This document shows, piece by piece, positions 292 through 28,272 of a stretch of DNA of 32,933 nucleotides. Position 1 is the first letter of the stretch. Every line of letters starts with the position of its first letter. Both the position numbers and the translations under genes were made by a program. This DNA comes from an uncultured Caryophanales bacterium (GTDB lineage: Bacteria > Bacillota_I > Bacilli_A > RF39 > UBA660): positions 1 through 32,933 of the forward strand of contig CAMYVT010000019.1 in NCBI GenBank assembly GCA_947302515.1, in the 5' to 3' direction. The notes beneath the pieces are model-generated. The model saw nothing but the letters and a program-made list of their open reading frames with translations, had not been told where the DNA came from and did no database searches.

Positions 292-320
292 TTGACAATT
301 ATTGATAAATGAGTTATGAT
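292..320 (+). promoter_or_regulatory. promoter of the tandem leader RNA and exporter operon
   Basis: Consensus -35 TTGACA (292-297), 17-bp spacer, -10 TATGAT (315-320). The predicted transcript starts near 327, just before the first structured element, so both elements are in the 5' leader of the ABC operon starting at 614. Confidence 0.75.
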
Positions 321-327
321 GTTGGCA

Positions 328-425
328 AGTCGAGTGAGTATGCATAAGGAAACGAGCTGCATAGAGAGTTAATCTTACACGTAAATACGGAGTCACTACT
401 ATTGTTAGTAGTGACTTTTTATTTT
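328..425 (+). promoter_or_regulatory. structured leader element 1 (candidate riboswitch or cis-regulatory RNA)
   Basis: First of two homologous leader elements. P1 pairs AGTGA (333-337) with TCACT (393-397). P2 pairs TATGCA with TGCATA around a core TAAG-NNNN-CGAGC. P3 is AGA/TCT, followed by TACACGTAAA and ACGGAGTCACT. Element 2 repeats these blocks almost exactly but varies the P2 apical tetraloop (GAAA here, TTAT there) and changes one P3 pair from A-T to G-C, which supports the fold. The 3' strand of P1 is also the 5' strand of the terminator at 391-421, so the two structures exclude each other, as in an ON riboswitch. The whole element is also flanked by a 7-bp complement (328-334 with 426-432). 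I cannot match it to a known riboswitch class from memory. Confidence 0.7.
391..421 (+). terminator. terminator of leader element 1
   Basis: Perfect 11-bp stem, AGTCACTACTA (391-401) with TAGTAGTGACT (406-416), loop TTGT, then a T tract. Its left arm contains the 3' half of the P1 helix of element 1. Confidence 0.85.
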
Positions 426-446
426 CTCGACTAGTTTTCATAGATT

Positions 447-540
447 TAAGTGAGTATGCATAAGTTATCGAGCTGCATAGGGAGAAATCCTACACGTAAA
501 CACGGAGTCACTATAGTATTAGGTTTACCGTGTTTTTTGT
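447..540 (+). promoter_or_regulatory. structured leader element 2 (tandem homologue of element 1)
   Basis: Second copy. AGTGAGTATGCATAAG (449-464), CGAGCTGCATAG (469-480), TACACGTAAA (491-500) and ACGGAGTCACTA (502-513) match element 1. P1 is AGTGA (449-453) with TCACT (508-512), and P3 is GGA/TCC around a GAAA loop. It ends in its own terminator, about 70 bases upstream of the exporter start codon. Two complete element-plus-terminator units in series suggest two-step attenuation of the same operon. Confidence 0.7.
498..538 (+). terminator. terminator of leader element 2
   Basis: AAACACGG (498-505) pairs with CCGTGTTT (528-535) and is followed by TTT. The left arm lies inside the conserved 3' core of element 2 (CGTAAACACGG), so it competes with the aptamer-like fold by a different overlap than in element 1. 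Confidence 0.7.
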
Positions 541-613
541 TTGAATTTATATTATAATAGTTTTGATGATAAGAAGTCTATGAAAATGAAATATTTAGAA
601 AGGAGTGATTAGT

Positions 614-1594
614 ATGGCTGTCATTACTGTAAAAAACTTAACAAAGAGTTTTAAAGTAAAACAAAAAGAAAAAGGATTAAAAGGTAGTTTAAAAACTTTT
701 ATTAAACCAAAATATAATATCATCAAAGCTGTTAAAAACATATCTTTCTCAGTAGAGAAAGGTGAAATGATTGCCTTCATTGGACCAAATGGAGCAGGAA
801 AATCTACATCTATTAAAATGATGACGGGAATTTTATTTCCAGATGGTGGAAAAATTGACGTCTTAGGTTATGATCCAACAAAAGAGAGAAAGAAATTGGC
901 GTATGAAATTGGCTGTGTCTTTGGACAAAAAGAACAATTATGGATGCATCTAACACCATATGATAACTTTAAATTCTTCGGAGCCATCTATGATATTCCT
1001 TCTAGTATAGTTGAGAAAAAAATAGATGAATTAAAAGAATTGTTTGAGTTAGATGAATTTATTAATACACCAGTACGTAATTTAAGCTTAGGTCAAAGAA
1101 TTCGTTGTGAAATAGTTGCTTCTCTAATTCATGAACCAAAAGTATTATTCTTAGATGAACCTACTATTGGATTAGATCCAGTTGTAAAAGAAAAGATAAG
1201 GACTTTAATTAAACGAATGAATAAAGAATATAAAACTACTGTAGTATTAACATCACATGATGTATCTGATATAGAAAAATTATGTAAAAGAGTAATTATT
1301 GTTAATAAAGGTCAAATTGTCTTAGATGATACAATGGAGAACTTAAAGTACCATTATCTTAATAAAAAGATAATAGATGCTAAAATGAAAGAAAAAGTAA
1401 ACTTAGATAGTGTAGAAGGAATTAATATTCTAAAAGATAAAGACTATAATTTAAAACTAGAAGTAGATTTAAAAAAGAAAAGTATTAGTGATGCTATTAA
1501 ATTATTAAATCCTGATAATATGATAGATATTAATATATCAAATGTTCCTCTAGAACAAATAATTAGTGAAATATATAAAGATGGTGATAAATAA
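614..1594 (+). CDS. ABC-2 type exporter, ATP-binding subunit
   Basis: 326-residue ATPase that would power the two permeases encoded next. Walker A GPNGAGKST is at about residues 57-65, the signature is LSLGQR, Walker B is VLFLDEPTIGLDP and the H-loop is TSHD. A C-terminal extension of about 90 residues follows the ATPase core. With its two partners it matches the uncharacterised COG4586/COG4587/COG3694 exporter set, whose studied relatives export drugs or small toxic compounds. I chose ATG 614 because AAGGAG (600-605) is well spaced for it; the upstream GTG at 605 lies inside the binding site. Its stop overlaps the next start by one base (1594). Expression is probably controlled by the tandem leader RNA at 328-540. 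The substrate is unknown. Confidence 0.9.
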   Translation: MAVITVKNLTKSFKVKQKEKGLKGSLKTFIKPKYNIIKAVKNISFSVEKGEMIAFIGPNGAGKSTSIKMMTGILFPDGGKIDVLGYDPTKERKKLAYEIGCVFGQKEQLWMHLTPYDNFKFFGAIYDIPSSIVEKKIDELKELFELDEFINTPVRNLSLGQRIRCEIVASLIHEPKVLFLDEPTIGLDPVVKEKIRTLIKRMNKEYKTTVVLTSHDVSDIEKLCKRVIIVNKGQIVLDDTMENLKYHYLNKKIIDAKMKEKVNLDSVEGINILKDKDYNLKLEVDLKKKSISDAIKLLNPDNMIDINISNVPLEQIISEIYKDGDK

Positions 1595-2385
1595 TGAAGA
1601 AGTATTTATACATCTTTAAATCAGAATTAATGACTAATCTTCAATATACATTTGATATTATAATTGGATTTATTAGTTATATTATCATGATATTTATCTT
1701 TTTAAATCTATGGAAGTATATCTACAGTGATCCAAATGAAGTAATTAATGGATATACTATGAATCAAATGATTTGGTATGTTATTGTTACTGAAATATTA
1801 TGGATGAGTTTAGGTGGTAGAAAACTATGTAAAAAGATCTGTAATGATGTACGTAGTGGTAATATTTCATATAATATTACAAAACCATATAACTATGTAG
1901 AATTTAGTTTGTTTAGTCATTTAGGAATTACTACTTTAAAGTTCTTTCTAATTACAATAATAGGTATGTTATTAGGATTATTATTCTTAAATGAATTTCC
2001 TAATTTAACAATATTAAGTATCTTAGGAATATTACTATCTTGTTTATTTGCAACAATAATTAATATTTTAATAATTGTTACTATAGGTTTAATATCATTC
2101 TTTATAGAAGATGCTAATCCAATATATTGGTTATATAGTAAACTAATATTAGTAGTAGGAACAATATTTCCAATAGAATTCTTTCCTAATATCTTGCAAC
2201 CATTTATAAAGTATAGTCCTATCTATGTAGTTAGTTATGGACCTGCTAAATTATTTGTAGATTTTACAACAAGTAAATTTATAGAAATAATGATTATACA
2301 AGTAATCTATCTAGTAATATGCTTTATAATTGCTCATTTATTATATAGGAAAGGGGTGAAAAAATTAAATGTTAACGGAGGCTAA
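1594..2385 (+). CDS. ABC-2 exporter permease, first subunit
   Basis: 263 residues with about six hydrophobic segments, an ABC-2 membrane subunit of the COG4587 kind. The order ATPase, permease, DUF990-type permease and the length fit that family. It is translationally coupled to the ATPase (one-base overlap) and overlaps the following permease by 17 bases. It would form half of the membrane channel for the unknown exported compound. Confidence 0.8.
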   Translation: MKKYLYIFKSELMTNLQYTFDIIIGFISYIIMIFIFLNLWKYIYSDPNEVINGYTMNQMIWYVIVTEILWMSLGGRKLCKKICNDVRSGNISYNITKPYNYVEFSLFSHLGITTLKFFLITIIGMLLGLLFLNEFPNLTILSILGILLSCLFATIINILIIVTIGLISFFIEDANPIYWLYSKLILVVGTIFPIEFFPNILQPFIKYSPIYVVSYGPAKLFVDFTTSKFIEIMIIQVIYLVICFIIAHLLYRKGVKKLNVNGG

Positions 2386-3163
2386 AAATCAAATAAGAGT
2401 AACTTTCCAATCAATTAAATATGCTTTACAAAGAGAAATGTTAAATAAAGTAACATTTATCTCTAATATACTTTTCATGATACTTAATAATGCATGTTTT
2501 ATTGTTCAATGGATTATTCTTTACTCATTAAAAGATGAAGTTGGTGGATATACTTTTAAACAAGTATTATTGTTATGGGGTATGGCTGCATTAACTTATG
2601 GTATTTCAAGATTCTTCTTTAGGGATTCATTTGAATTATCAGATATTATTAATAGTGGTAAACTAGATAATTATTTAGTACAACCAAAAAATGTCCTAAT
2701 TCAATCTATTACAAGTAGTGTAGAAGTATCTGCTATAGGAGATATGATCTATGGATTTATTATGTTATTTCTATTTGGTCTTGATTTAAAAAGCTTTTTA
2801 TTATTTATCTTCTGTGGAATCTGTGGAGCTCTAGTAATAGTCAGTATTGCAGTTATTTTTTCATCTCTATCATTCTGGTTTGGTAGAACTGAAATGATTG
2901 CTAATACAGTAAATAGTTTAATGGTTAATTTTGCAACATATCCTGAAGGAATATTTAAAGGAATAATCAAAATACTATTCTATACAATACTTCCTTTAGG
3001 ATTAACTACATATATACCAATACAATTAATTAGTAATTTTAATCCAATATATTTAATATATATAGTTATAGGTACTATTATTTTTATAACAATATCATTC
3101 TTAATATTCTATAAAGGATTAAAGAGATATAGTAGTACTAATTTAATGAATGCAAGAATTTAG
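2369..3163 (+). CDS. ABC-2 exporter permease, DUF990 family
   Basis: 264 residues, about six membrane segments. The motif GKLDNYLVQPKNVL near residue 95-110, after a long cytoplasmic N-terminal helix, is typical of the DUF990 (ABC2_membrane_6, COG3694) permeases. A purine-rich site (about 2350-2358) precedes ATG 2369, inside the end of the previous gene. It pairs with the upstream permease to make a heterodimeric exporter. Confidence 0.85.
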   Translation: MLTEAKNQIRVTFQSIKYALQREMLNKVTFISNILFMILNNACFIVQWIILYSLKDEVGGYTFKQVLLLWGMAALTYGISRFFFRDSFELSDIINSGKLDNYLVQPKNVLIQSITSSVEVSAIGDMIYGFIMLFLFGLDLKSFLLFIFCGICGALVIVSIAVIFSSLSFWFGRTEMIANTVNSLMVNFATYPEGIFKGIIKILFYTILPLGLTTYIPIQLISNFNPIYLIYIVIGTIIFITISFLIFYKGLKRYSSTNLMNARI

Positions 3164-3171
3164 GTGATTTT

Positions 3172-3954
3172 ATGAAAATATTAAAAGATGATTTATTAAA
3201 AATAGATTCATTTCAAGAAGAAAAAGAAAAATTTTATGTAATATCATTAATCTCTACGGGAGATAATCCCCTTATTATTTCGGATTTAGATAATTATGTA
3301 ATAGCAAGAAGTGAAATTGGTTATCCTACATGGATTTGGACAAAAGATAATATATCTAAAGATATAATATTAGAATTAGAAAAAGAATTAGATAATTATT
3401 TTGTATCCGGAGAAAACAAATTTACTTGTAAAAAAGAATTATTTGAATTATTAAAGAAAAAGAATGATACTTACAAAGAATTAGAAATGGGATTTTTATC
3501 TTGTGATGAACCAGTTAAACCATCAAAAGGAAAAGGTATATTTGTAAGACCAAATTATAGTGATAAAGTCACTATTGCTGAATATCTAAGAGCTCATAAT
3601 AAAGAATTATTTAATAAAGAAACAACACAAAAAGATGCTTTAGAAGAAGTAGAGGGATGGCTAGAAGAAAATAATTTTTATGTTTTAAAAGATTCAAGTG
3701 GAGAAATTGTATCAATGGCAAGTTTTGGAATAGTAGGTAATCTTGCTAAAATATCTCATGTCTATACTACCCCAGAAGAAAGAGGAAAGGGTTATTGTCA
3801 ATATTTAATCTATTCCTTAGCAAAAAAATTAATAGATGATGGATATAAACCAATATTATATACAGATTATGATTATAAAGCGTCCAATGAAGCCTACAAA
3901 AAAGTGGGATTTCAAGATAATGGTACATTAATGAATTTTAGTATTGATAAATAA
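3172..3954 (+). CDS. GNAT family N-acetyltransferase
   Basis: 260 residues with two parts. The N-terminal ~120 residues have no motif I recognise. The C-terminal ~145 residues are a GNAT fold: the acetyl-CoA loop EERGKGYCQYL follows the strand ISHVYTT (about residues 190-210), and the last motif is NEAYKKVGF. It would transfer an acetyl group to an unknown amine. The binding site AGGTGA overlaps the stop codon of the exporter permease, so it is the last gene of that operon, and a terminator follows. Linkage to the exporter makes modification of the exported compound possible, but that is inference. Confidence 0.8.
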   Translation: MKILKDDLLKIDSFQEEKEKFYVISLISTGDNPLIISDLDNYVIARSEIGYPTWIWTKDNISKDIILELEKELDNYFVSGENKFTCKKELFELLKKKNDTYKELEMGFLSCDEPVKPSKGKGIFVRPNYSDKVTIAEYLRAHNKELFNKETTQKDALEEVEGWLEENNFYVLKDSSGEIVSMASFGIVGNLAKISHVYTTPEERGKGYCQYLIYSLAKKLIDDGYKPILYTDYDYKASNEAYKKVGFQDNGTLMNFSIDK

Positions 3955-4744: not shown

Positions 4745-5308
4745 ATGGAAAAAGATGAATATAAATTAACAATTAAAAAGATATGGGGACATTTTAAAGT
4801 GGTTAATACTCATAGATGGAAAGTGTTTTGTCTTTGTTGCAAAGTGGGAATTCCTCTACAAGGATTCATGCATGATATGTCTAAATACTTACCAGTAGAG
4901 TTCTTTGAAACGGCAAGATATTTTGATCAAGGTAAATATAGCCCTATTCGTAAATGTAAAGAAGAAAAAGGTTATAGTATGGCCTGGATTCATCATAAAA
5001 ATCATAATAAACATCACTATGAATATTGGTATGATTACAATGCCAATACTCCATCTCCTATAATGCCTTTTAAATACTTTTTAGAGTTATTATGCGATTC
5101 TTTTGCAGCAGGTCAAACATATCAAGGAAAAAATTGGAATAAAGAATATCAATTAAAATATTGGTCTAATGTAAAAACAAAAGCAATTATTCATCCTAAA
5201 ATGGAAAAATTATTAGATAAAGTATATACTGATGTAAGTATCGAAGGATTAGATAAAGTTTTAAAAAGAAAAAGATTAAAAAAACTAAATGATGATTATA
5301 CTTCTTAA
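4745..5308 (+). CDS. DUF5662 family protein (HD-like)
   Basis: 187 residues rich in His, Tyr and Trp. HDMSKY at about residues 43-48 and the cluster HHKNHNKHHYEYW at about residues 82-94 look like metal-binding positions of an HD-type fold. The pattern matches the DUF5662 family, which has no established reaction. The gene has its own promoter (TATAAT 4724-4729) and terminator (5314-5350) and is separate from clpB downstream. Confidence 0.7.
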   Translation: MEKDEYKLTIKKIWGHFKVVNTHRWKVFCLCCKVGIPLQGFMHDMSKYLPVEFFETARYFDQGKYSPIRKCKEEKGYSMAWIHHKNHNKHHYEYWYDYNANTPSPIMPFKYFLELLCDSFAAGQTYQGKNWNKEYQLKYWSNVKTKAIIHPKMEKLLDKVYTDVSIEGLDKVLKRKRLKKLNDDYTS

Positions 5309-5397: not shown

Positions 5398-5419
5398 ATA
5401 CTAATGAGAGGTGATAGAT

Positions 5420-7528
5420 ATGTATAATTATCCAGAAGAACAACAAGAAGAAAATGTCTTAGAAAAATATGGTAGAGACATAGTCGCAGACGCTAAAGCA
5501 GGAAAAATAGATCCTGTTATTGGTAGGGATGAAGAAATACGTAGTATTACAAGAGTATTATCAAGAAAAACTAAAAATAATCCTGTTCTTATTGGAGAAC
5601 CGGGAGTTGGTAAAACTGCAATAGTAGAAGGTTTAGCTTTAAGAATTCTAAAAGGTGATGTTCCTAGCTCTTTAAAAAATAAAAAGATTTGGGAACTAGA
5701 TATGGCATCTTTAGTAGCAGGAGCTAAATATCGTGGAGAATTTGAAGAAAGAATTAAAAATGTCCTAAATGAAGTAAAGAAAAGTGAAGGAGATATTATC
5801 ATGTTTATTGATGAAATACACATGATAGTAGGAACTGGATCAGCAGAAGGTTCTATGGATGCCTCTAATATTTTAAAACCAATGCTTGCTAGAGGAGAAA
5901 TTCATGTAATAGGAGCAACTACTCTAAATGAATATAGAAAATATATTGAAAAAGATGGAGCATTAGAAAGACGTTTCCAAAAGATTAAAGTAGAAGAGCC
6001 TAATGTTGAAGATACTATTACAATACTTAGGGGATTAAAGGAAAGATTTGAAATACATCATGGAGTAACTATTCAAGATAAAGCATTGATATCTGCAGCA
6101 ACTCTATCAAATAGATATATAACAGATAGATATTTACCGGATAAAGCAATAGACTTAGTAGATGAAGCTTGTGCTACGATAAGAGTACAAATGGATTCTG
6201 TTCCATTTGAATTAGATAGCTTAACTCATAGAATAATGAGATTAGAAATAGAACGTCAAGCTATTAAGAAAGAAAAAGATGAGTTATCTGTTAAAAGAAA
6301 AGAAGATATTGATAGAGAACTAGAAAGTATGAAAGAAAAAGAAAAAGAATTAACAGAAGCTTGGAATAAAGAAAAAGATATTAATAATCAAATAAGTAAA
6401 AAGAAAAAAGAATTAGAAAAACTAAGATTTGAATTAGAACAAGCAGAAAATAAATATGATTTAGAGAGAGCAGCAATACTTCGTCATGGAGAAATACCAA
6501 AAGCAGAAAAAGAATTAGAAGAATTAAATAAAGTAGAAAAAAATAAATTATTAAGTGATACTGTAACAGATGAAGATATTTGTAATATTATTGCTAAATG
6601 GACTAATATTCCAGTAACTAAGTTAATGGAATCTGAAAAAGAAAAATTACTTCAATTAGAAGAAGAAATGAAGAAAAGAGTAATGGGTCAAGATGAAGTC
6701 TTAAAAATAGTAAGTGATGCTATATTAAAATCAAGAAGTGGTATTAAAGATCCAAATAGACCAATAGCTAGTTTTATGTTTTTAGGTCCAACAGGAGTAG
6801 GTAAAACTGAAGTAGCAAGAACTTTAGCCTATGAATTATTTGATGATGAAAGACATATGGTAAGAATAGATATGTCAGAGTATATGGAAAAATTCTCTGT
6901 ATCAAGATTAATTGGATCTCCTCCAGGATATGTAGGTTATGAAGAAGGGGGACAATTAACAGAAGCAGTAAGACGTAATCCATATAGTATTGTATTATTT
7001 GATGAAATTGAGAAAGCTCATCCAGAAGTATTAAATCTATTATTACAAATTCTAGATGATGGTAGAGTAACAGACTCTAATGGACGTACAGTAGACTTTA
7101 AAAATACTATTATAATTATGACTTCTAACTTAGGAAGTGAATTTGTCTTAGATAATCAAAAAGATAAAGTAATGCAAGAAGTAAAAGCTAACTTTAGACC
7201 AGAATTTATAAATCGTATAGATGAAATAGTAGTATTTAATTCTTTATCTAAAGATGCAATTAATAAGATATTAGATAAGATTATTAATGAAATAGAATAT
7301 AGATTAAAAGATATAGATCTTCATATAGAATTAACAGATAAAGCAAGAGAAGAATTCATTGAAGAAGGTTATGATATTAACTTTGGAGCGAGACCACTAA
7401 AAAGATTAGTAGGTAGAACTCTAGAAGTAGATTTATCAAGATTATTAATTGATGGTACTCTAAAAGAACATGATACTGTAGTAGTAAACTACGTAAATGA
7501 TAAATTTGTAATAAAGAAGAGAATCTAA
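5420..7528 (+). CDS. clpB: ClpB-type disaggregase lacking the N-terminal domain
   Basis: 702-residue AAA+ unfoldase. Walker A1 GEPGVGKT is at about residues 59-66 and Walker B1 IIMFIDEIH at about 126-134. A long coiled-coil middle domain spans about 263-372, Walker A2 GPTGVGKT 456-463, and Walker B2 [11 protein letters not shown] is near 523-533. The long middle domain and the lack of a ClpP-binding tripeptide mark it as ClpB rather than ClpC. It threads aggregated proteins through its ring and usually works with DnaK. Full-length ClpB is about 860 residues; here the ~140-residue Clp_N repeats are absent and the protein starts directly before the first AAA module. ATG 5420 follows AGAGGTG; the GTG at 5411 lies inside that site. 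CIRCE implies control by HrcA and heat. Confidence 0.93.
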
Positions 7529-7578: not shown

Positions 7579-8301
7579 ATGGGTAAAATAATTAAACTTA
7601 TAACTTTAACAATAACTCTGACTTTATTAATAATTATTCTAATATTAAATATTACATCTAAAGCAGTAACTAATGAAATAATTACAGGAATCTGGAATAA
7701 AATTATTCCACAAGAAACAGTGGAAAAAGCAAAAGATAATAAAGTAACTAATTGGTTTAAAGATTTATCAAATAATGAAGAAGTACAAAGTTTTATAGAT
7801 AAATATATTGATAGTGAAGAAGTAAATAAAATAAAAGATAAAATAAATGATACAAAAGAACAAGTACAAGAAGAATTATCTAAAAAGATGAATGATTTTA
7901 TTAAAGAACAAGAGGAAAAATTATCTCCTTCACAAAAGTTTGCTCTAAATACATATAGATTTATAACAAATGCTAAATTAAAAGGAATTATAATTATCGC
8001 TATTATAATTAACTTATTATTAATAGCAATTACTAAATTATCTCTATATAAATGGATTAAAAACTTATCTTACTCACTTATTTTAAGTGGATTAGGTATT
8101 ATATTCTTAGCAGCATGGCTTAAGAGTAAAATATATTACATAATAAAAGTAAGTGTTAATCTGGGAGTATTATCAAGACCCGGATATATATTATTAATTA
8201 GTGGAATAATAATAATATTTATATACTTTGTAACTAGTATAATTATTAAATCTAATAAAAAAGATAAGGAGGAAGAAGATGAAGTATCCGAAGTTTCTTA
8301 A
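7579..8301 (+). CDS. membrane protein of unknown function
   Basis: 240 residues. One hydrophobic segment lies near residues 5-27, followed by a charged, helical middle (about 40-120), then three more membrane segments and an acidic tail KEEEDEVSEVS. I recognise no family. TATAAT (about 7554-7559) and GAGGAG upstream suggest it opens the envelope operon that continues to 13211. Its last 23 bases overlap the LD-carboxypeptidase gene, so the two are translationally coupled. Confidence 0.75.
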   Translation: MGKIIKLITLTITLTLLIIILILNITSKAVTNEIITGIWNKIIPQETVEKAKDNKVTNWFKDLSNNEEVQSFIDKYIDSEEVNKIKDKINDTKEQVQEELSKKMNDFIKEQEEKLSPSQKFALNTYRFITNAKLKGIIIIAIIINLLLIAITKLSLYKWIKNLSYSLILSGLGIIFLAAWLKSKIYYIIKVSVNLGVLSRPGYILLISGIIIIFIYFVTSIIIKSNKKDKEEEDEVSEVS

Positions 8302-9265
8302 AGAAAATTCAACAATAGGTATAACAGCACCTTCTTCTGGAGTAGGATGGCAATTAGAAGATTATGAAAAGTCATTAAATAATCTAAAGAAGAATAATTG
8401 GAATATTGTAGAAACATCTAATGTAAGAGTAGAAGGAGATGTATCTTCTCCAGCAAAACAAAGAGGAGAAGAATTCATGGATTTAATATCTGATGATAAT
8501 GTAGATGCGGTTATTTGTGCTACTGGAGGAGACTTTCTAACAGATATGCTTCCCTATGTAAATAGTGAAGAAATTATTTTAAATCCAAAATGGATAATGG
8601 GAGCAAGTGATCCTACTAATTTACTTTATTACATAACAACAGCTCTTGATATCTCAACAATCTATGGACATAATGCCGGTAGTTTTGATGCTAAAAAGTT
8701 ATATAAATCTCAAGAAATAGCATTAGAATTTTTAAAAGGAAATATTCTTTCTCAAGAAAGTTATGATTATTATGAAACTGATAGAGAAGGAAGAGTAGAT
8801 GGAGCATACAATCTAACAGAAAAAAGCATCTGGAAATCTAATAAAGATGAAATAGATATTACTGGTAGATTAATAGGTGGTTGTATTGATTGTTTACAAT
8901 ATCTTCCAGGAACAAAATATGATTGTACAAAAGAGTTTATTAACAAGTACAAAGAAGATGGATTTGTTTGGTACTTTGATGTATTTGCTTTAAGATCAGC
9001 AGACTTCTACTTATCATTATTTGAATTAAAAGAAGCAGGCTGGTTTGAAAATGTTAAAGGAGTAATTGTAGGAAGAATATTATTTAAAAATGAAGATACA
9101 TCTATGACCTATGAAAAAGCCTTAAAAGAAATATTTGGAGATATACCAATTATTATGGATGCTGATATTGGTCATGTTGCTCCTAAGATGACACTTATTA
9201 ATGGAGCAATTGCTCATGTAACATATAAAAATAATAAAGGTACTATAGAACAATATCTAAAGTAG
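8279..9265 (+). CDS. S66 family LD-carboxypeptidase / MccF-like peptidase
   Basis: 328 residues. The N-terminal half carries the nucleophile in GASDPTN (Ser110). The C-terminal half has GGCIDCLQ, the segment WYFD (Asp234) and DIGHVAPK (His299). The spacing of Ser110, Asp234 and His299 is close to that of the MccF triad Ser118, Glu243, His311, but an Asp stands where MccF has Glu. S66 enzymes trim the L-D bond of muropeptides in the cytoplasm or inactivate microcin C-like compounds. A strong site, AAGGAGG (8266-8272), precedes ATG 8279. Neighbours are membrane and ABC export genes, which suits cell-envelope recycling or self-protection; the choice cannot be made from sequence. Confidence 0.85.
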   Translation: MKYPKFLKENSTIGITAPSSGVGWQLEDYEKSLNNLKKNNWNIVETSNVRVEGDVSSPAKQRGEEFMDLISDDNVDAVICATGGDFLTDMLPYVNSEEIILNPKWIMGASDPTNLLYYITTALDISTIYGHNAGSFDAKKLYKSQEIALEFLKGNILSQESYDYYETDREGRVDGAYNLTEKSIWKSNKDEIDITGRLIGGCIDCLQYLPGTKYDCTKEFINKYKEDGFVWYFDVFALRSADFYLSLFELKEAGWFENVKGVIVGRILFKNEDTSMTYEKALKEIFGDIPIIMDADIGHVAPKMTLINGAIAHVTYKNNKGTIEQYLK

Positions 9266-15524: not shown

Positions 15525-15553
15525 TTGACATTTTTACTAAAATATGCTATAAT
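15525..15553 (+). promoter_or_regulatory. perfect consensus promoter of the large RNA gene
   Basis: TTGACA (15525-15530), exactly 17 bp, then TATAAT (15548-15553) with a TG extension (TGC before the -10 box). Every position matches the housekeeping sigma consensus, which predicts strong constitutive transcription from about 15560. Confidence 0.92.
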
Positions 15554-15559
15554 GCTTTA

Positions 15560-16186
15560 TGTAATTGATGGCACATTATTCTAGTCAATTACTTTATTAT
15601 GAAGACGACCCTAAAAAGTCGTTAAAGGGCATATCTGTGAAACCTTTGGTGTCTGCTTCTTACGCCCAGTTTGGGGTGGATGCTGGAGATGAGAATTTTG
15701 GGCGACTCATAATGGCATATGAATCACGACCCACTATTCGTGGAGACCTGTTCTTGTGGTAAATCTATACGTACAACAACTGATGATTTATTACGAAACA
15801 GGATAGAACCTGTATTGTGGCGAAAGCTATGTGCAGTGTAGCCTGTCTTGAGTGAGAATATTGGGATAAATGAACTTACTAATGATAAGAGGCCACTTAT
15901 TATTAGGAATTGCATTTTGAAATTATTCTTGCAAAAAAGGACTAATTTTAAAGTGTTGGAGAGGAAATCTCCTAGAGTGTATTTCGTTTGTAGGATTGCA
16001 GTGGGCACTAAGTGGTAATCAAGTCGTATGGTATGGTAACACCATATTAATTCTATTAAAGGGGAACCGCAAGTCTGGTAACGGATTTGTAAGAATTAGG
16101 GAAATCCTACTTGACCTAAGGCTCAAAGTTTACTATAACGAATGCCAAACAATTCCAAAATTAAAGTAGTATAACTACTTTTTTTT
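15560..16186 (+). ncRNA. large structured non-coding RNA, about 625 nt, class unassigned
   Basis: The stretch between promoter and terminator has no convincing gene, is richer in G and C than its flanks (26 of 60 bases at 15601-15660), and is dense in hairpins. Helices I can see: 15561-15568 with 15585-15592 (8 bp, right at the 5' end); 15604-15609/15618-15623; 15624-15628/15643-15647; CCAC/GTGG around 15732-15743; ACAGG 15798-15802/CCTGT 15809-15813; a GAAA-capped stem near 15816-15829; GGAGA 15958-15962/TCTCC 15968-15972; TATGGT 16032-16037/ACCATA 16041-16046; TAGG/CCTA near 16098-16109. It lacks the marks of RNase P, tmRNA, SRP RNA and group II introns. Size, solitary placement and strong promoter resemble ROOL, OLE or GOLLD RNAs, but I cannot assign it. 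Confidence 0.85.
16164..16186 (+). terminator. terminator of the large RNA gene
   Basis: AAGTAGT (16164-16170), loop ATA, ACTACTT (16174-16180), then a long T run. Confidence 0.9.
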
Positions 16187-26613: not shown

Positions 26614-28272
26614 ATGGAAGAAAATACAGAACAAAAAGTTGAAAATGAAGAGAAAAAAGAAGAAGTACAACCAGTTGAAAATGAAGCACAACAAGTAACA
26701 CCTGAAGTAAAAGAAGCAAAAAAGAAAAAGAAAGGTAAAGCAATTATAATTGTATGTATTATTGTTATTCTTGTTGCTATTTTAGGAACTGTAGCAGTAG
26801 TATTCTTAAAAGGACAACCTAAGAAGGAAAAAGTAAAAGTAGAAAAACCAGTATCAGCTTCTCCATATAAATTAAGTGGTAATGGGTTAGAAGATTTTGA
26901 CTTATATTTCCTTCAATTAGAAAATAAGCAAGAAAACATGATATATAGTCCATTATCAATTAAATATGCTTTAGCTATGTTAAATGAAGGTACTGCTGGA
27001 AAATCACATGAACAAATTTTAGCAGTAATTGGAGATTATAAACCAAAAAAATATAATAATAATGAACATATGTCATTTGCAAACTCTATGTTTATTAAAG
27101 AAACATATAAAGATGCTATTAAAACAGAGTATACTGATAAATTAAAAGAAAAATATGGGGCAGAAGTGTTTGTAGATCCATTCACTAGTCCAGATCCAAT
27201 GAACAATTGGATAAGTGACAAGACATTTCATTTAATAGAAAATATGTTAGATAATTCAGTGTCAGAATATGATTTCTTTATTATTAATGCACTAGCAATT
27301 GATATGAACTGGGTTAATCAATTACAATGTGAAACAACACAAGCAAGACAAGAACACAAAGTGAGTTGTAAATATTATTCAGTAAATTATAAACATGAAA
27401 ACTATTCTGATTATGTAAGAGATATAGAAGAAACTAAAAAATATGACACCATAGATTTCAATGGTAAACAAGCAAAATCATTAGAACTAGGAGCAAGTAT
27501 TAATAATTATGATATTGTTAAGACTTTAGGTGAAGATAATATTCGTAAGACAGTAGGAGAAAAACTACAGGAATATATTGATAATGGTGGAGAAATGTGT
27601 GGTAAAACATATGATGAATATATGGATGATTATATCAAAGATATAGATTCTAATTATAAGCAAGTAGATTTTTCAACAGATTTTTATCTATATGATAGTT
27701 CTGAACTAAAAGCATTTGCTAAAGATCTACAAACTTATGATAGAACAACCCTTCAGTATGTAGCAATTATGCCTAAAGAAGCATCATTAGAGTCTTATGT
27801 TAAAGAATTAGATGCTAAGAGTCTTAATACAGTTATTAGTAATTTAAAAGATATTAAATTAGAAAACTTTAAAGAGGGTGTAGTTACTAAGATTGAAGGG
27901 CATATACCTGTATTCAAATATGATTATCAATTAAAATTAAAAGAGGATTTACAAAAATTAGGTATTGAAGATGTATTCAGTGCAGAAAAAGCAGATTTAT
28001 CAAATATGATAAAAACAAAAGGTGGAGAGTTTATTGCAAAAGCAGATCATAAAGCTACAATTGAATTCTCTAATGATGGAATTAAAGCCTCTGCTGTTAC
28101 AGTGTTTGGTGGAAAAGGAGCTGCAAATTGTGAAACTTTTGAATACAAATATGATGTACCAGTAGAAACAATTGATATTACTTTCAATAAACCATATTTA
28201 TATATTATTAGAGACAAAGATACAGGAGAAGTATGGTTTACTGGAACAGTATATTCTCCAACAGAACAATAA
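26614..28272 (+). CDS. membrane-anchored serpin
   Basis: 552 residues. A cytoplasmic tail of about 42 residues, rich in Glu and Lys, is followed by one membrane segment (about 43-65) and an outward serpin domain from about 85. MIYSPLSIKYALAMLNEGTAGKS is the conserved N-terminal serpin region. Residues about 480-510 hold the hinge and reactive loop (FSNDGIKASAVTVFGGKGAA), and FNKPYLYIIRDKDTGEVWFTG is the serpin C-terminal signature. The hinge reads NDGIKASAVT where inhibitory serpins have EEGTEAAAAT. About 100 extra residues (roughly 245-355) interrupt the usual core. It may inhibit host or own proteases at the cell surface. AAGGAGAG precedes ATG 26614. Confidence 0.88.
   Translation: MEENTEQKVENEEKKEEVQPVENEAQQVTPEVKEAKKKKKGKAIIIVCIIVILVAILGTVAVVFLKGQPKKEKVKVEKPVSASPYKLSGNGLEDFDLYFLQLENKQENMIYSPLSIKYALAMLNEGTAGKSHEQILAVIGDYKPKKYNNNEHMSFANSMFIKETYKDAIKTEYTDKLKEKYGAEVFVDPFTSPDPMNNWISDKTFHLIENMLDNSVSEYDFFIINALAIDMNWVNQLQCETTQARQEHKVSCKYYSVNYKHENYSDYVRDIEETKKYDTIDFNGKQAKSLELGASINNYDIVKTLGEDNIRKTVGEKLQEYIDNGGEMCGKTYDEYMDDYIKDIDSNYKQVDFSTDFYLYDSSELKAFAKDLQTYDRTTLQYVAIMPKEASLESYVKELDAKSLNTVISNLKDIKLENFKEGVVTKIEGHIPVFKYDYQLKLKEDLQKLGIEDVFSAEKADLSNMIKTKGGEFIAKADHKATIEFSNDGIKASAVTVFGGKGAANCETFEYKYDVPVETIDITFNKPYLYIIRDKDTGEVWFTGTVYSPTEQ

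What the first reader, a model, noticed from the sequence alone, without database searches (positions are those of the whole stretch)
328..540. Two homologous structured RNA elements in tandem, each with its own terminator, upstream of an ABC-2 exporter operon
Seen: blocks AGTGAGTATGCATAAG, CGAGCTGCATAG, TACACGTAAA and ACGGAGTCACTA occur twice in the same order about 116 bases apart. The variable parts are where a structured RNA would allow them: the P2 apical tetraloop (GAAA versus TTAT) and one P3 base pair that changes from A-T to G-C, keeping the pairing. Both copies end in a U-tailed hairpin. Inference: a tandem riboswitch or other ligand-sensing attenuator for the exporter at 614-3163. 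I cannot match it to a named riboswitch class. The exporter suggests the ligand is a toxic small molecule or antibiotic.
Basis: partly seen in the sequence, partly recalled or inferred. Interest (0 to 1): 0.85.

Follow-up and report, generated by a model that had tools for sequence, protein, structure and literature searches.

The report
Candidate new riboswitch before exporter genes
Two copies of an undescribed folded RNA sit at the start of a bacterial exporter operon, and about a hundred relatives at other genes in one group of uncultured bacteria suggest an RNA sensor whose signal molecule is still unknown.

Summary
Window 333-397 and 449-512 are two copies of one structured RNA, each running into a U-tailed hairpin, behind a near-consensus promoter (292-320) and before an ABC-2 exporter operon. 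Rfam 15 has no match. A pattern scan plus covariance models gave 95 retained copies (of 97) in 70 loci, in the samples searched all from one order of uncultured Bacilli (57 of 385 genomes, two doubtful). The fold is a four-helix junction with near-invariant joining bases; 15 of 18 pairs show compensatory changes and 95.3% of cells pair. In 84 of 95 copies P1's 3' strand re-pairs in the downstream hairpin, so aptamer and terminator exclude each other: a ligand should switch the genes ON. Promoters end 6-15 nt before the element in 67 of 77 units. Of 76 downstream units, 47 carry the exporter and/or GNAT acetyltransferases; 12 begin with a protein family predicted to resemble the Spo0A DNA-binding domain. 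No leader peptide is conserved. Best reading: a new orphan ON-riboswitch class, doubled in series at the exporter, probably sensing a toxic, perhaps amine-bearing, small molecule. The ligand is not established; no binding was tested.

The parts
292..320 (+). Sigma-70-type promoter TTGACA-17-TATGAT, ending 12 nt before copy 1
   Evidence: 11 of 12 consensus positions; a promoter-like site ends 6-15 nt before the element in 67 of 77 units
333..397 (+). Aptamer copy 1: P1 333-337/393-397; P2 339-344/358-363 with UAA/GAGC internal loop and GAAA loop; P3 364-367/373-376; P4 380-382/387-389
   Evidence: R1 89.4 bits (this copy was in the model), R2 79.3 bits; covariation; MFE equals the consensus
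389..422 (+). Terminator 1; its 5' arm takes all five bases of the P1 3' strand
449..512 (+). Aptamer copy 2: P1 449-453/508-512; P2 455-460/474-479; P3 480-483/488-491; P4 495-497/502-504
   Evidence: R1 85.9 bits (this copy was in the model), R2 80.1 bits; the MFE differs from the consensus only in the P2 apical part
500..538 (+). Terminator 2 (ACACGG/CCGTGT, then T run); its 5' arm takes the P4 3' strand and, in the MFE, 2 of 5 P1 bases
328..432 (+). Lineage-specific inverted repeat AGTCGAG (328-334) / CTCGACT (426-432) enclosing copy 1
   Evidence: a like helix in 6 of 6 window-type loci, but in single loci 2 to 47 of 100 shuffles do as well
434..587 (+). Lineage-specific inverted repeat GTTTTCATAGATTT (434-447) / AAGTCTATGAAAAT (574-587) enclosing copy 2
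   Evidence: 0 of 100 shuffles in the window; clear in 3 of 6 window-type loci by this test
614..1594 (+). ABC exporter ATPase, first controlled gene
   Evidence: PF00005 5.6e-30, scanned from the upstream GTG at 605
1594..2385 (+). ABC-2 permease 1 (ABC2_membrane_6)
   Evidence: PF06182 9.5e-20
2369..3163 (+). ABC-2 permease 2 (ABC2_membrane_6)
   Evidence: PF06182 1.7e-34
3172..3954 (+). GNAT acetyltransferase, probably in the same operon
   Evidence: PF00583 1.9e-10; follows the exporter in 6 of 6 window-type loci, the window included

Best explanation
An undescribed class of cis-regulatory RNA that works as an ON-type, terminator-controlled riboswitch. A strong promoter starts the transcript at the element. 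Without ligand, the growing RNA first forms the four-helix aptamer and then rearranges: the P1 3' strand and/or the P4 3' strand pairs downstream into an intrinsic terminator and transcription stops. A ligand that holds the junction closed keeps P1 and P4 paired, the terminator cannot form, and the exporter, acetyltransferase and other genes are made. In the window two such sensors stand in series, so both must be occupied for read-through, giving tighter shut-off and a steeper response. Shown by comparison: the fold, the conserved core, the overlap of aptamer and terminator, promoter position and gene association. Inferred: that the trigger is a small molecule, that binding turns genes on, and that it is a toxic, perhaps amine-bearing, compound.
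For: 97 matches, 95 retained. On all 97: 95.3% of 1676 cells paired; 15 of 18 pairs and 310 cells with changes on both sides (0 of 500 shuffles each); further pair types 40 (6 of 500 shuffles reach it); covariation score 0.506 against 0.197 shuffled and at most 0.138 slid. On 42 representatives under 75% identity, 714 of 748 cells pair. RNAalifold gave the same fold on the first 10 sequences, aligned without structure. P2 apical helix mean 2.63 pairs against 0.64 shuffled. Near-invariant unpaired bases G6, UA, AGC, ACA, GAG. T-run in 94 of 95; P1 3' strand (3 or more of 5 bases) inside the downstream hairpin in 84 of 95, P4 3' strand in 54, either in 91. Stepwise folding of both window copies keeps P1 until the terminator arm emerges, then loses it. 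Promoter-like site in 70 of 77 units against 22 expected. First start codon within 125 nt in 66 of 76 units. No conserved leader ORF.
Against: No ligand, binding or expression data. P1's outermost pair is often not a standard pair (37 of 94 distinct rows). Window copy 2's terminator uses only 2 of 5 P1 bases in the MFE, and the isolated aptamers fold no better than shuffles. The terminator-overlap count had no shuffled control. A4 was fitted to the model's structure and leans towards it. The downstream genes are mixed (LeuA-like, YitT, methyltransferase, many unknown), which does not point to one pathway. All evidence comes from related genomes of one order.
Confidence: 0.75

Rival explanations
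1. A protein-binding antiterminator site: an RNA-binding protein, not a small molecule, stabilises the junction and prevents termination.
For: Many different genes share the element, as in antiterminator regulons. Twelve units begin with a protein family of predicted Spo0A effector-domain-like fold, though that domain is known to bind DNA. One relative (L118) lists the bglG/LicT cis-element RF03530, but at 12.6 of 80 bits, E 6.1, over the terminator region.
Against: The element is 60-109 nt (91 of 95 at most 85) with about a dozen near-invariant unpaired bases, larger than the simple RAT-type hairpins (recalled). No RNA-binding antiterminator gene was recognised among the families I scanned; I did not search for one genome-wide.
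Confidence: 0.12
2. A very divergent member of a riboswitch class already known, with the same ligand.
For: Classes can drift below detection. One relative (L075) scored 22.6 bits with the trpB motif RF04312.
Against: That score is far under the 59-bit cut-off, E 0.19-0.22, and aligns one stem and the terminator but not the conserved core. No riboswitch family reaches E<=1 over the element in 20 relatives or E<=10 in the window. [quoted passage not shown]
Confidence: 0.07
3. A translated leader peptide or ribosome-stalling attenuator.
For: Window copy 1 holds a short frame from the ATG in P2.
Against: ATG in the first 14 nt in only 29 of 95; GTG frame open in 28 of 86; element lengths spread evenly modulo 3 (35/30/30). 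The predicted start site leaves little room for a ribosome-binding site.
Confidence: 0.02
4. A free small RNA gene with its own promoter and terminator, not a cis-regulator.
For: Promoter and terminator frame a short transcript of roughly 100 nt.
Against: A same-strand gene follows within 125 nt in 66 of 76 units. Four internal copies between genes lack a promoter-like site of 9 or more of 12 (L077, L107, L118, L123). P1 overlaps the terminator.
Confidence: 0.04

Closest known systems
Riboswitches with transcription-terminator expression platforms, ON type (general)
   Same: Aptamer with conserved core and covarying stems in the 5' leader; P1 3' strand shared with an intrinsic terminator
   Different: No ligand known; fold and core match no family in the Rfam 15 searches made
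Guanidine-IV riboswitch and its variant Gd4v
   Same: Both control GNAT acetyltransferases and exporters; Gd4v is also an orphan (PMC9788692, abstract and passages)
   Different: Their exporters are MATE-like, and sugE for guanidine-IV; here ABC-2 with paired PF06182 permeases. No guanidine family was listed in any Rfam call
trpB motif RF04312
   Same: Firmicutes/Fusobacteria orphan leader with a terminator; ABC transporter most often downstream (PMC11109978, passages)
   Different: Hairpin plus terminator rather than a four-helix junction; only 22.6 of 59 bits in one relative, no shared core blocks
Tandem riboswitches (T-box, c-di-GMP; glycine as adjacent aptamers)
   Same: Two complete sensors with two platforms in series; such pairs are described as independent and pseudo-cooperative (PMC12452182, passages)
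   Different: Other aptamers and ligands; here 18 of 76 units are tandem and 15 of those front the exporter operon

Membership tests
Riboswitch (general kind) | Conserved secondary structure supported by compensatory changes | tested here: met
   15 of 18 pairs, 310 cells, 0 of 500 shuffles for each; also on an alignment made without structure
Riboswitch (general kind) | Lies in the 5' leader of genes in the same orientation | tested here: met
   first start codon within 125 nt in 66 of 76 units; promoter-like site just upstream in 67 of 77
Riboswitch (general kind) | Aptamer and expression platform mutually exclusive | tested here: met
   84 of 95 by in-silico folding, no shuffled control; stepwise folding of the window copies
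Riboswitch (general kind) | Direct, selective binding of a small ligand that changes expression | not testable with these tools
   needs in-line probing and reporters
Any Rfam 15 family | Score at or above the family's gathering cut-off | tested here: not met
   none over 328-540 at gathering; at E<=10 over 200-620 only two miRNA families and one snoRNA family, all far below cut-off
trpB motif RF04312 | Gathering score of 59 bits and the motif's conserved core | tested here: not met
   22.6 bits in L075; not listed for the window, L118 or L125
Guanidine-IV / Gd4v | Match to the family's covariance model | tested here: inconclusive
   no guanidine family listed in any Rfam call; I did not check which guanidine models Rfam 15 holds
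T-box leader | Match to RF00230 | tested here: not met
   no match over the element; one sub-threshold T-box match lies elsewhere in L039 (2227-2403)
BglG/LicT-type antiterminator element RF03530 | Gathering score of 80 bits | tested here: not met
   12.6 bits in one relative, over its terminator
Spo0A effector domain (first gene of 12 units) | Same fold | tested here: inconclusive
Spo0A effector domain (first gene of 12 units) | Sequence match to the family | tested here: not met
   no Spo0A hit in the PDB profile search or in Pfam for 11 members; weak HTH-type hits in single members only

The most novel reading that the evidence does not exclude
A new riboswitch class that senses a toxic natural product or amine and acts as the master switch of a 'detoxification regulon' in an uncultured order of small-genome Bacilli: one RNA sensor, present up to four times per genome, directly turns on an ABC exporter, several acetyltransferases, nucleoside-processing enzymes and stand-alone Spo0A-like regulators, with doubled sensors where tight control of the exporter is needed.
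Probability: 0.35. Interest if true: 0.82.

Novelty: new member of a known kind. Interest (0 to 1): 0.65.

Why it matters
It adds a well-supported orphan riboswitch candidate, with an alignment, covariance models and about 100 examples, from bacteria known here only as metagenome-assembled genomes. The regulon gives a concrete hypothesis for the ligand. If the ligand is an antibiotic or toxic metabolite, it would be a direct RNA sensor for chemical defence, and finding it would tell what these bacteria are exposed to.

Tried and rejected
Rfam at gathering and at E<=10 on the window, and at E<=1 or E<=10 on relatives (20 loci whole; L118, L075 and L125 as short stretches): no class. The trpB-motif near-miss was inspected and rejected.

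Leader peptide: rejected.

Phage or plasmid origin: two exact core patterns in viral contigs gave 0 hits; blastn of 328-540 against plasmids and phages gave no match. These tests find close copies only.

Wider distribution: class sample 7 of 395, six being genomes of the order already seen and the seventh (G317, 22.3 bits) lacking the TACAC and GGAGTCAC blocks, taken as chance; phylum sample 1 of 392, the query genome itself. These searches used strict filters and can miss weak relatives. L001 (Tolumonas) is taken as a chance pattern match: it lacks the P1 strands and lies in what looks like coding DNA.

Rows dropped: L087:1049 (22.7 bits) and L093:5078 (16 bits) from the 97; the pair counts still include them. 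L072:5001 (20.1 bits) was kept because it is the tandem partner of a clear copy. G111 and G243 are doubtful. L045 and the second L015 copy were left out of A3. L088 has an element but no first gene of 80 aa before its contig end.

A different regulator at exporters without the element: the G241 and G055 exporter loci show no element, and their gene lists gave no clue. Helices enclosing each copy are mainly a feature of the window's close relatives; a strong one also appears at L121 (0 of 100 shuffles).

Spo0A membership of the 12 first genes: fold likely, sequence search negative.

Literature: seven searches showed no paper describing this motif in the rows listed; listings were capped (for example 20 of 369 papers). 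One 2017 candidate-RNA survey, known to me by recall, was not held. So absence from print is not proved. Papers were seen as search listings, abstracts and passages only (PMC9788692, PMC12452182, PMC11109978, PMC10043782); none was read whole.

Full report
OBSERVATION. The two blocks are real: direct repeats at 333-368/449-484 and 371-398/486-513. Copy 1 runs into a 13-pair terminator-like hairpin at 389-418, copy 2 into ACACGG...CCGTGT and a T run at 500-538. A promoter-like site with 11 of 12 consensus bases lies at 292-320. Downstream are an ABC ATPase, two PF06182 permeases and a GNAT. Rfam 15 gives no match over the element. Folding energy alone would not have made the case: without the terminators the pieces fold no better than shuffles.

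RELATIVES. An exact pattern scan of genome contigs found 6 stretches. One I take as chance (L001). The other five, from four Bacilli genomes, hold the same tandem or half of it before the same operon (L004 and L006 are two pieces of one contig). The first 10 copies, aligned by MAFFT, gave with RNAalifold the same four-helix structure that I had drawn by hand, with 7 of 19 pairs compensatory. A first covariance model found matches in 30 of 241 genomes of the order at E<=0.1. A second model, at E<=0.01, found 57 of 385 in the order (two doubtful), 7 of 395 in the class (six from that order, one chance) and 1 of 392 in the phylum, the query genome itself. So, within these samples and filters, the class is confined to one order. 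The named records are 'Bacilli' or 'Bacillales' MAGs; that the order may be RF39 is my recollection, not a result.

STRUCTURE. I fetched 70 stretches and searched them and the window: 97 matches, 95 kept, in 70 loci. On all 97, 95.3% of cells pair, 15 of 18 pairs have changes on both sides, 310 cells do, and the score is 0.506 against 0.197 shuffled; the number of further pair types is less distinct (6 of 500 shuffles reach it); sliding the partner drops pairing to 48% or less. This alignment was fitted to the model's structure, which leans towards it; the first alignment was not. With 42 representatives under 75% identity, 714 of 748 cells still pair. The consensus is P1 (GUGA/UCAC), G, P2 with a UAA/GAGC internal loop and a variable apical helix (2.63 pairs against 0.64 shuffled), P3, ACA, P4, GAG. 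A5, C147, A148 and G182 (alignment columns) are invariant in 95 copies.

MECHANISM. In 94 of 95 copies a T-run follows. In 84 of 95 at least three of the five P1 3' bases pair downstream in the hairpin, in 54 at least two of three P4 3' bases do, and in 91 one or the other holds (MFE of one stretch, first T-run, no shuffled control). Window copy 1 gives up all five P1 bases, copy 2 two of five plus all three of P4. Stepwise folding of both window copies keeps P1 until the terminator's 3' arm is made, then loses it. This predicts default OFF and ligand ON. Promoter-like sites score at least 9 of 12 in 70 of 77 units (22 expected by shuffling), and 67 of the 70 end 6-15 nt before the element: the RNA probably begins at or just before the aptamer. 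A leader peptide is not conserved.

EXPORTER LINK. Of 13 genomes with the exporter permease in 241 of the order, 10 have the element at that operon (loci L070, L077, L080, L083, L089, L095, L096, L100, L104, L107). G113 probably does across a contig break, G055 has it elsewhere, and at G241's exporter none was found. A Fisher value computed assumes that two draws of 241 genomes are the same set, which I did not verify, so I do not rely on it. The permease itself is rare outside: 3 of 149 genomes of the class, one being the query genome.

TANDEM. 18 of 76 units, the window included, have two copies at most 170 nt apart, and 15 of these precede the exporter operon. In the six window-type loci, copy 1 resembles copy 1 of other genomes (0.892) a little more than copy 2 of its own (0.850), while copy 2 does not show this (0.832; copy 1 against copy 2 of others 0.818). 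So the doubling may be old, but this test is weak. Independent sensors in series are described as pseudo-cooperative (PMC12452182, passages).

NOVELTY. About 100 orphan candidates were said in 2022 to await validation (PMC10043782, passages), so a new orphan class is a new member of a known kind. What is unusual is the breadth and character of the regulon for so narrow a lineage.

Noticed in passing
window 15552-16164 (+): A full-length OLE RNA (RF01071, 412.5 bits) in the same window, followed by a 780-aa frame without a Pfam match and a 204-aa frame with a sub-threshold OPT match.
   Followed up: partly
L107:12080-12676, L116:539-1159, L113:542-1093 and nine more first genes: A family of about 129-207-aa proteins, often first gene behind the element; the model of one member resembles the Spo0A DNA-binding domain, without a sequence match.
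   Followed up: yes
L125:693-1862, L129:3649-4812: 2-isopropylmalate-synthase-like proteins of about 390 aa, shorter than the 494-523-aa bacterial family models (L125 only), behind the element.
   Followed up: no
window 328-432 and 434-587: Inverted repeats enclosing each copy with its terminator, mainly in the window's close relatives; they could insulate the two switches from each other.
   Followed up: partly
L077, L107, L116, L118, L123: A second element lies between the first gene and the next gene of the unit, in four of five without a promoter-like site of 9 or more of 12: an internal attenuator.
   Followed up: partly
L073, L098, L103 (element at 5001): The P2 apical part is enlarged, in L098 by short direct repeats (GAAAAGTAT-like), up to a 109-nt element.
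   Followed up: no
window 8279-9265 (+) and 26614-28272 (+): An S66 peptidase (LD-carboxypeptidase type) and a serpin-domain protein lie further along the window.
   Followed up: no
window 5411-7528 (+): A 705-aa ClpB-like ATPase that aligns from model position 149, so the N-terminal domain seems absent.
   Followed up: no
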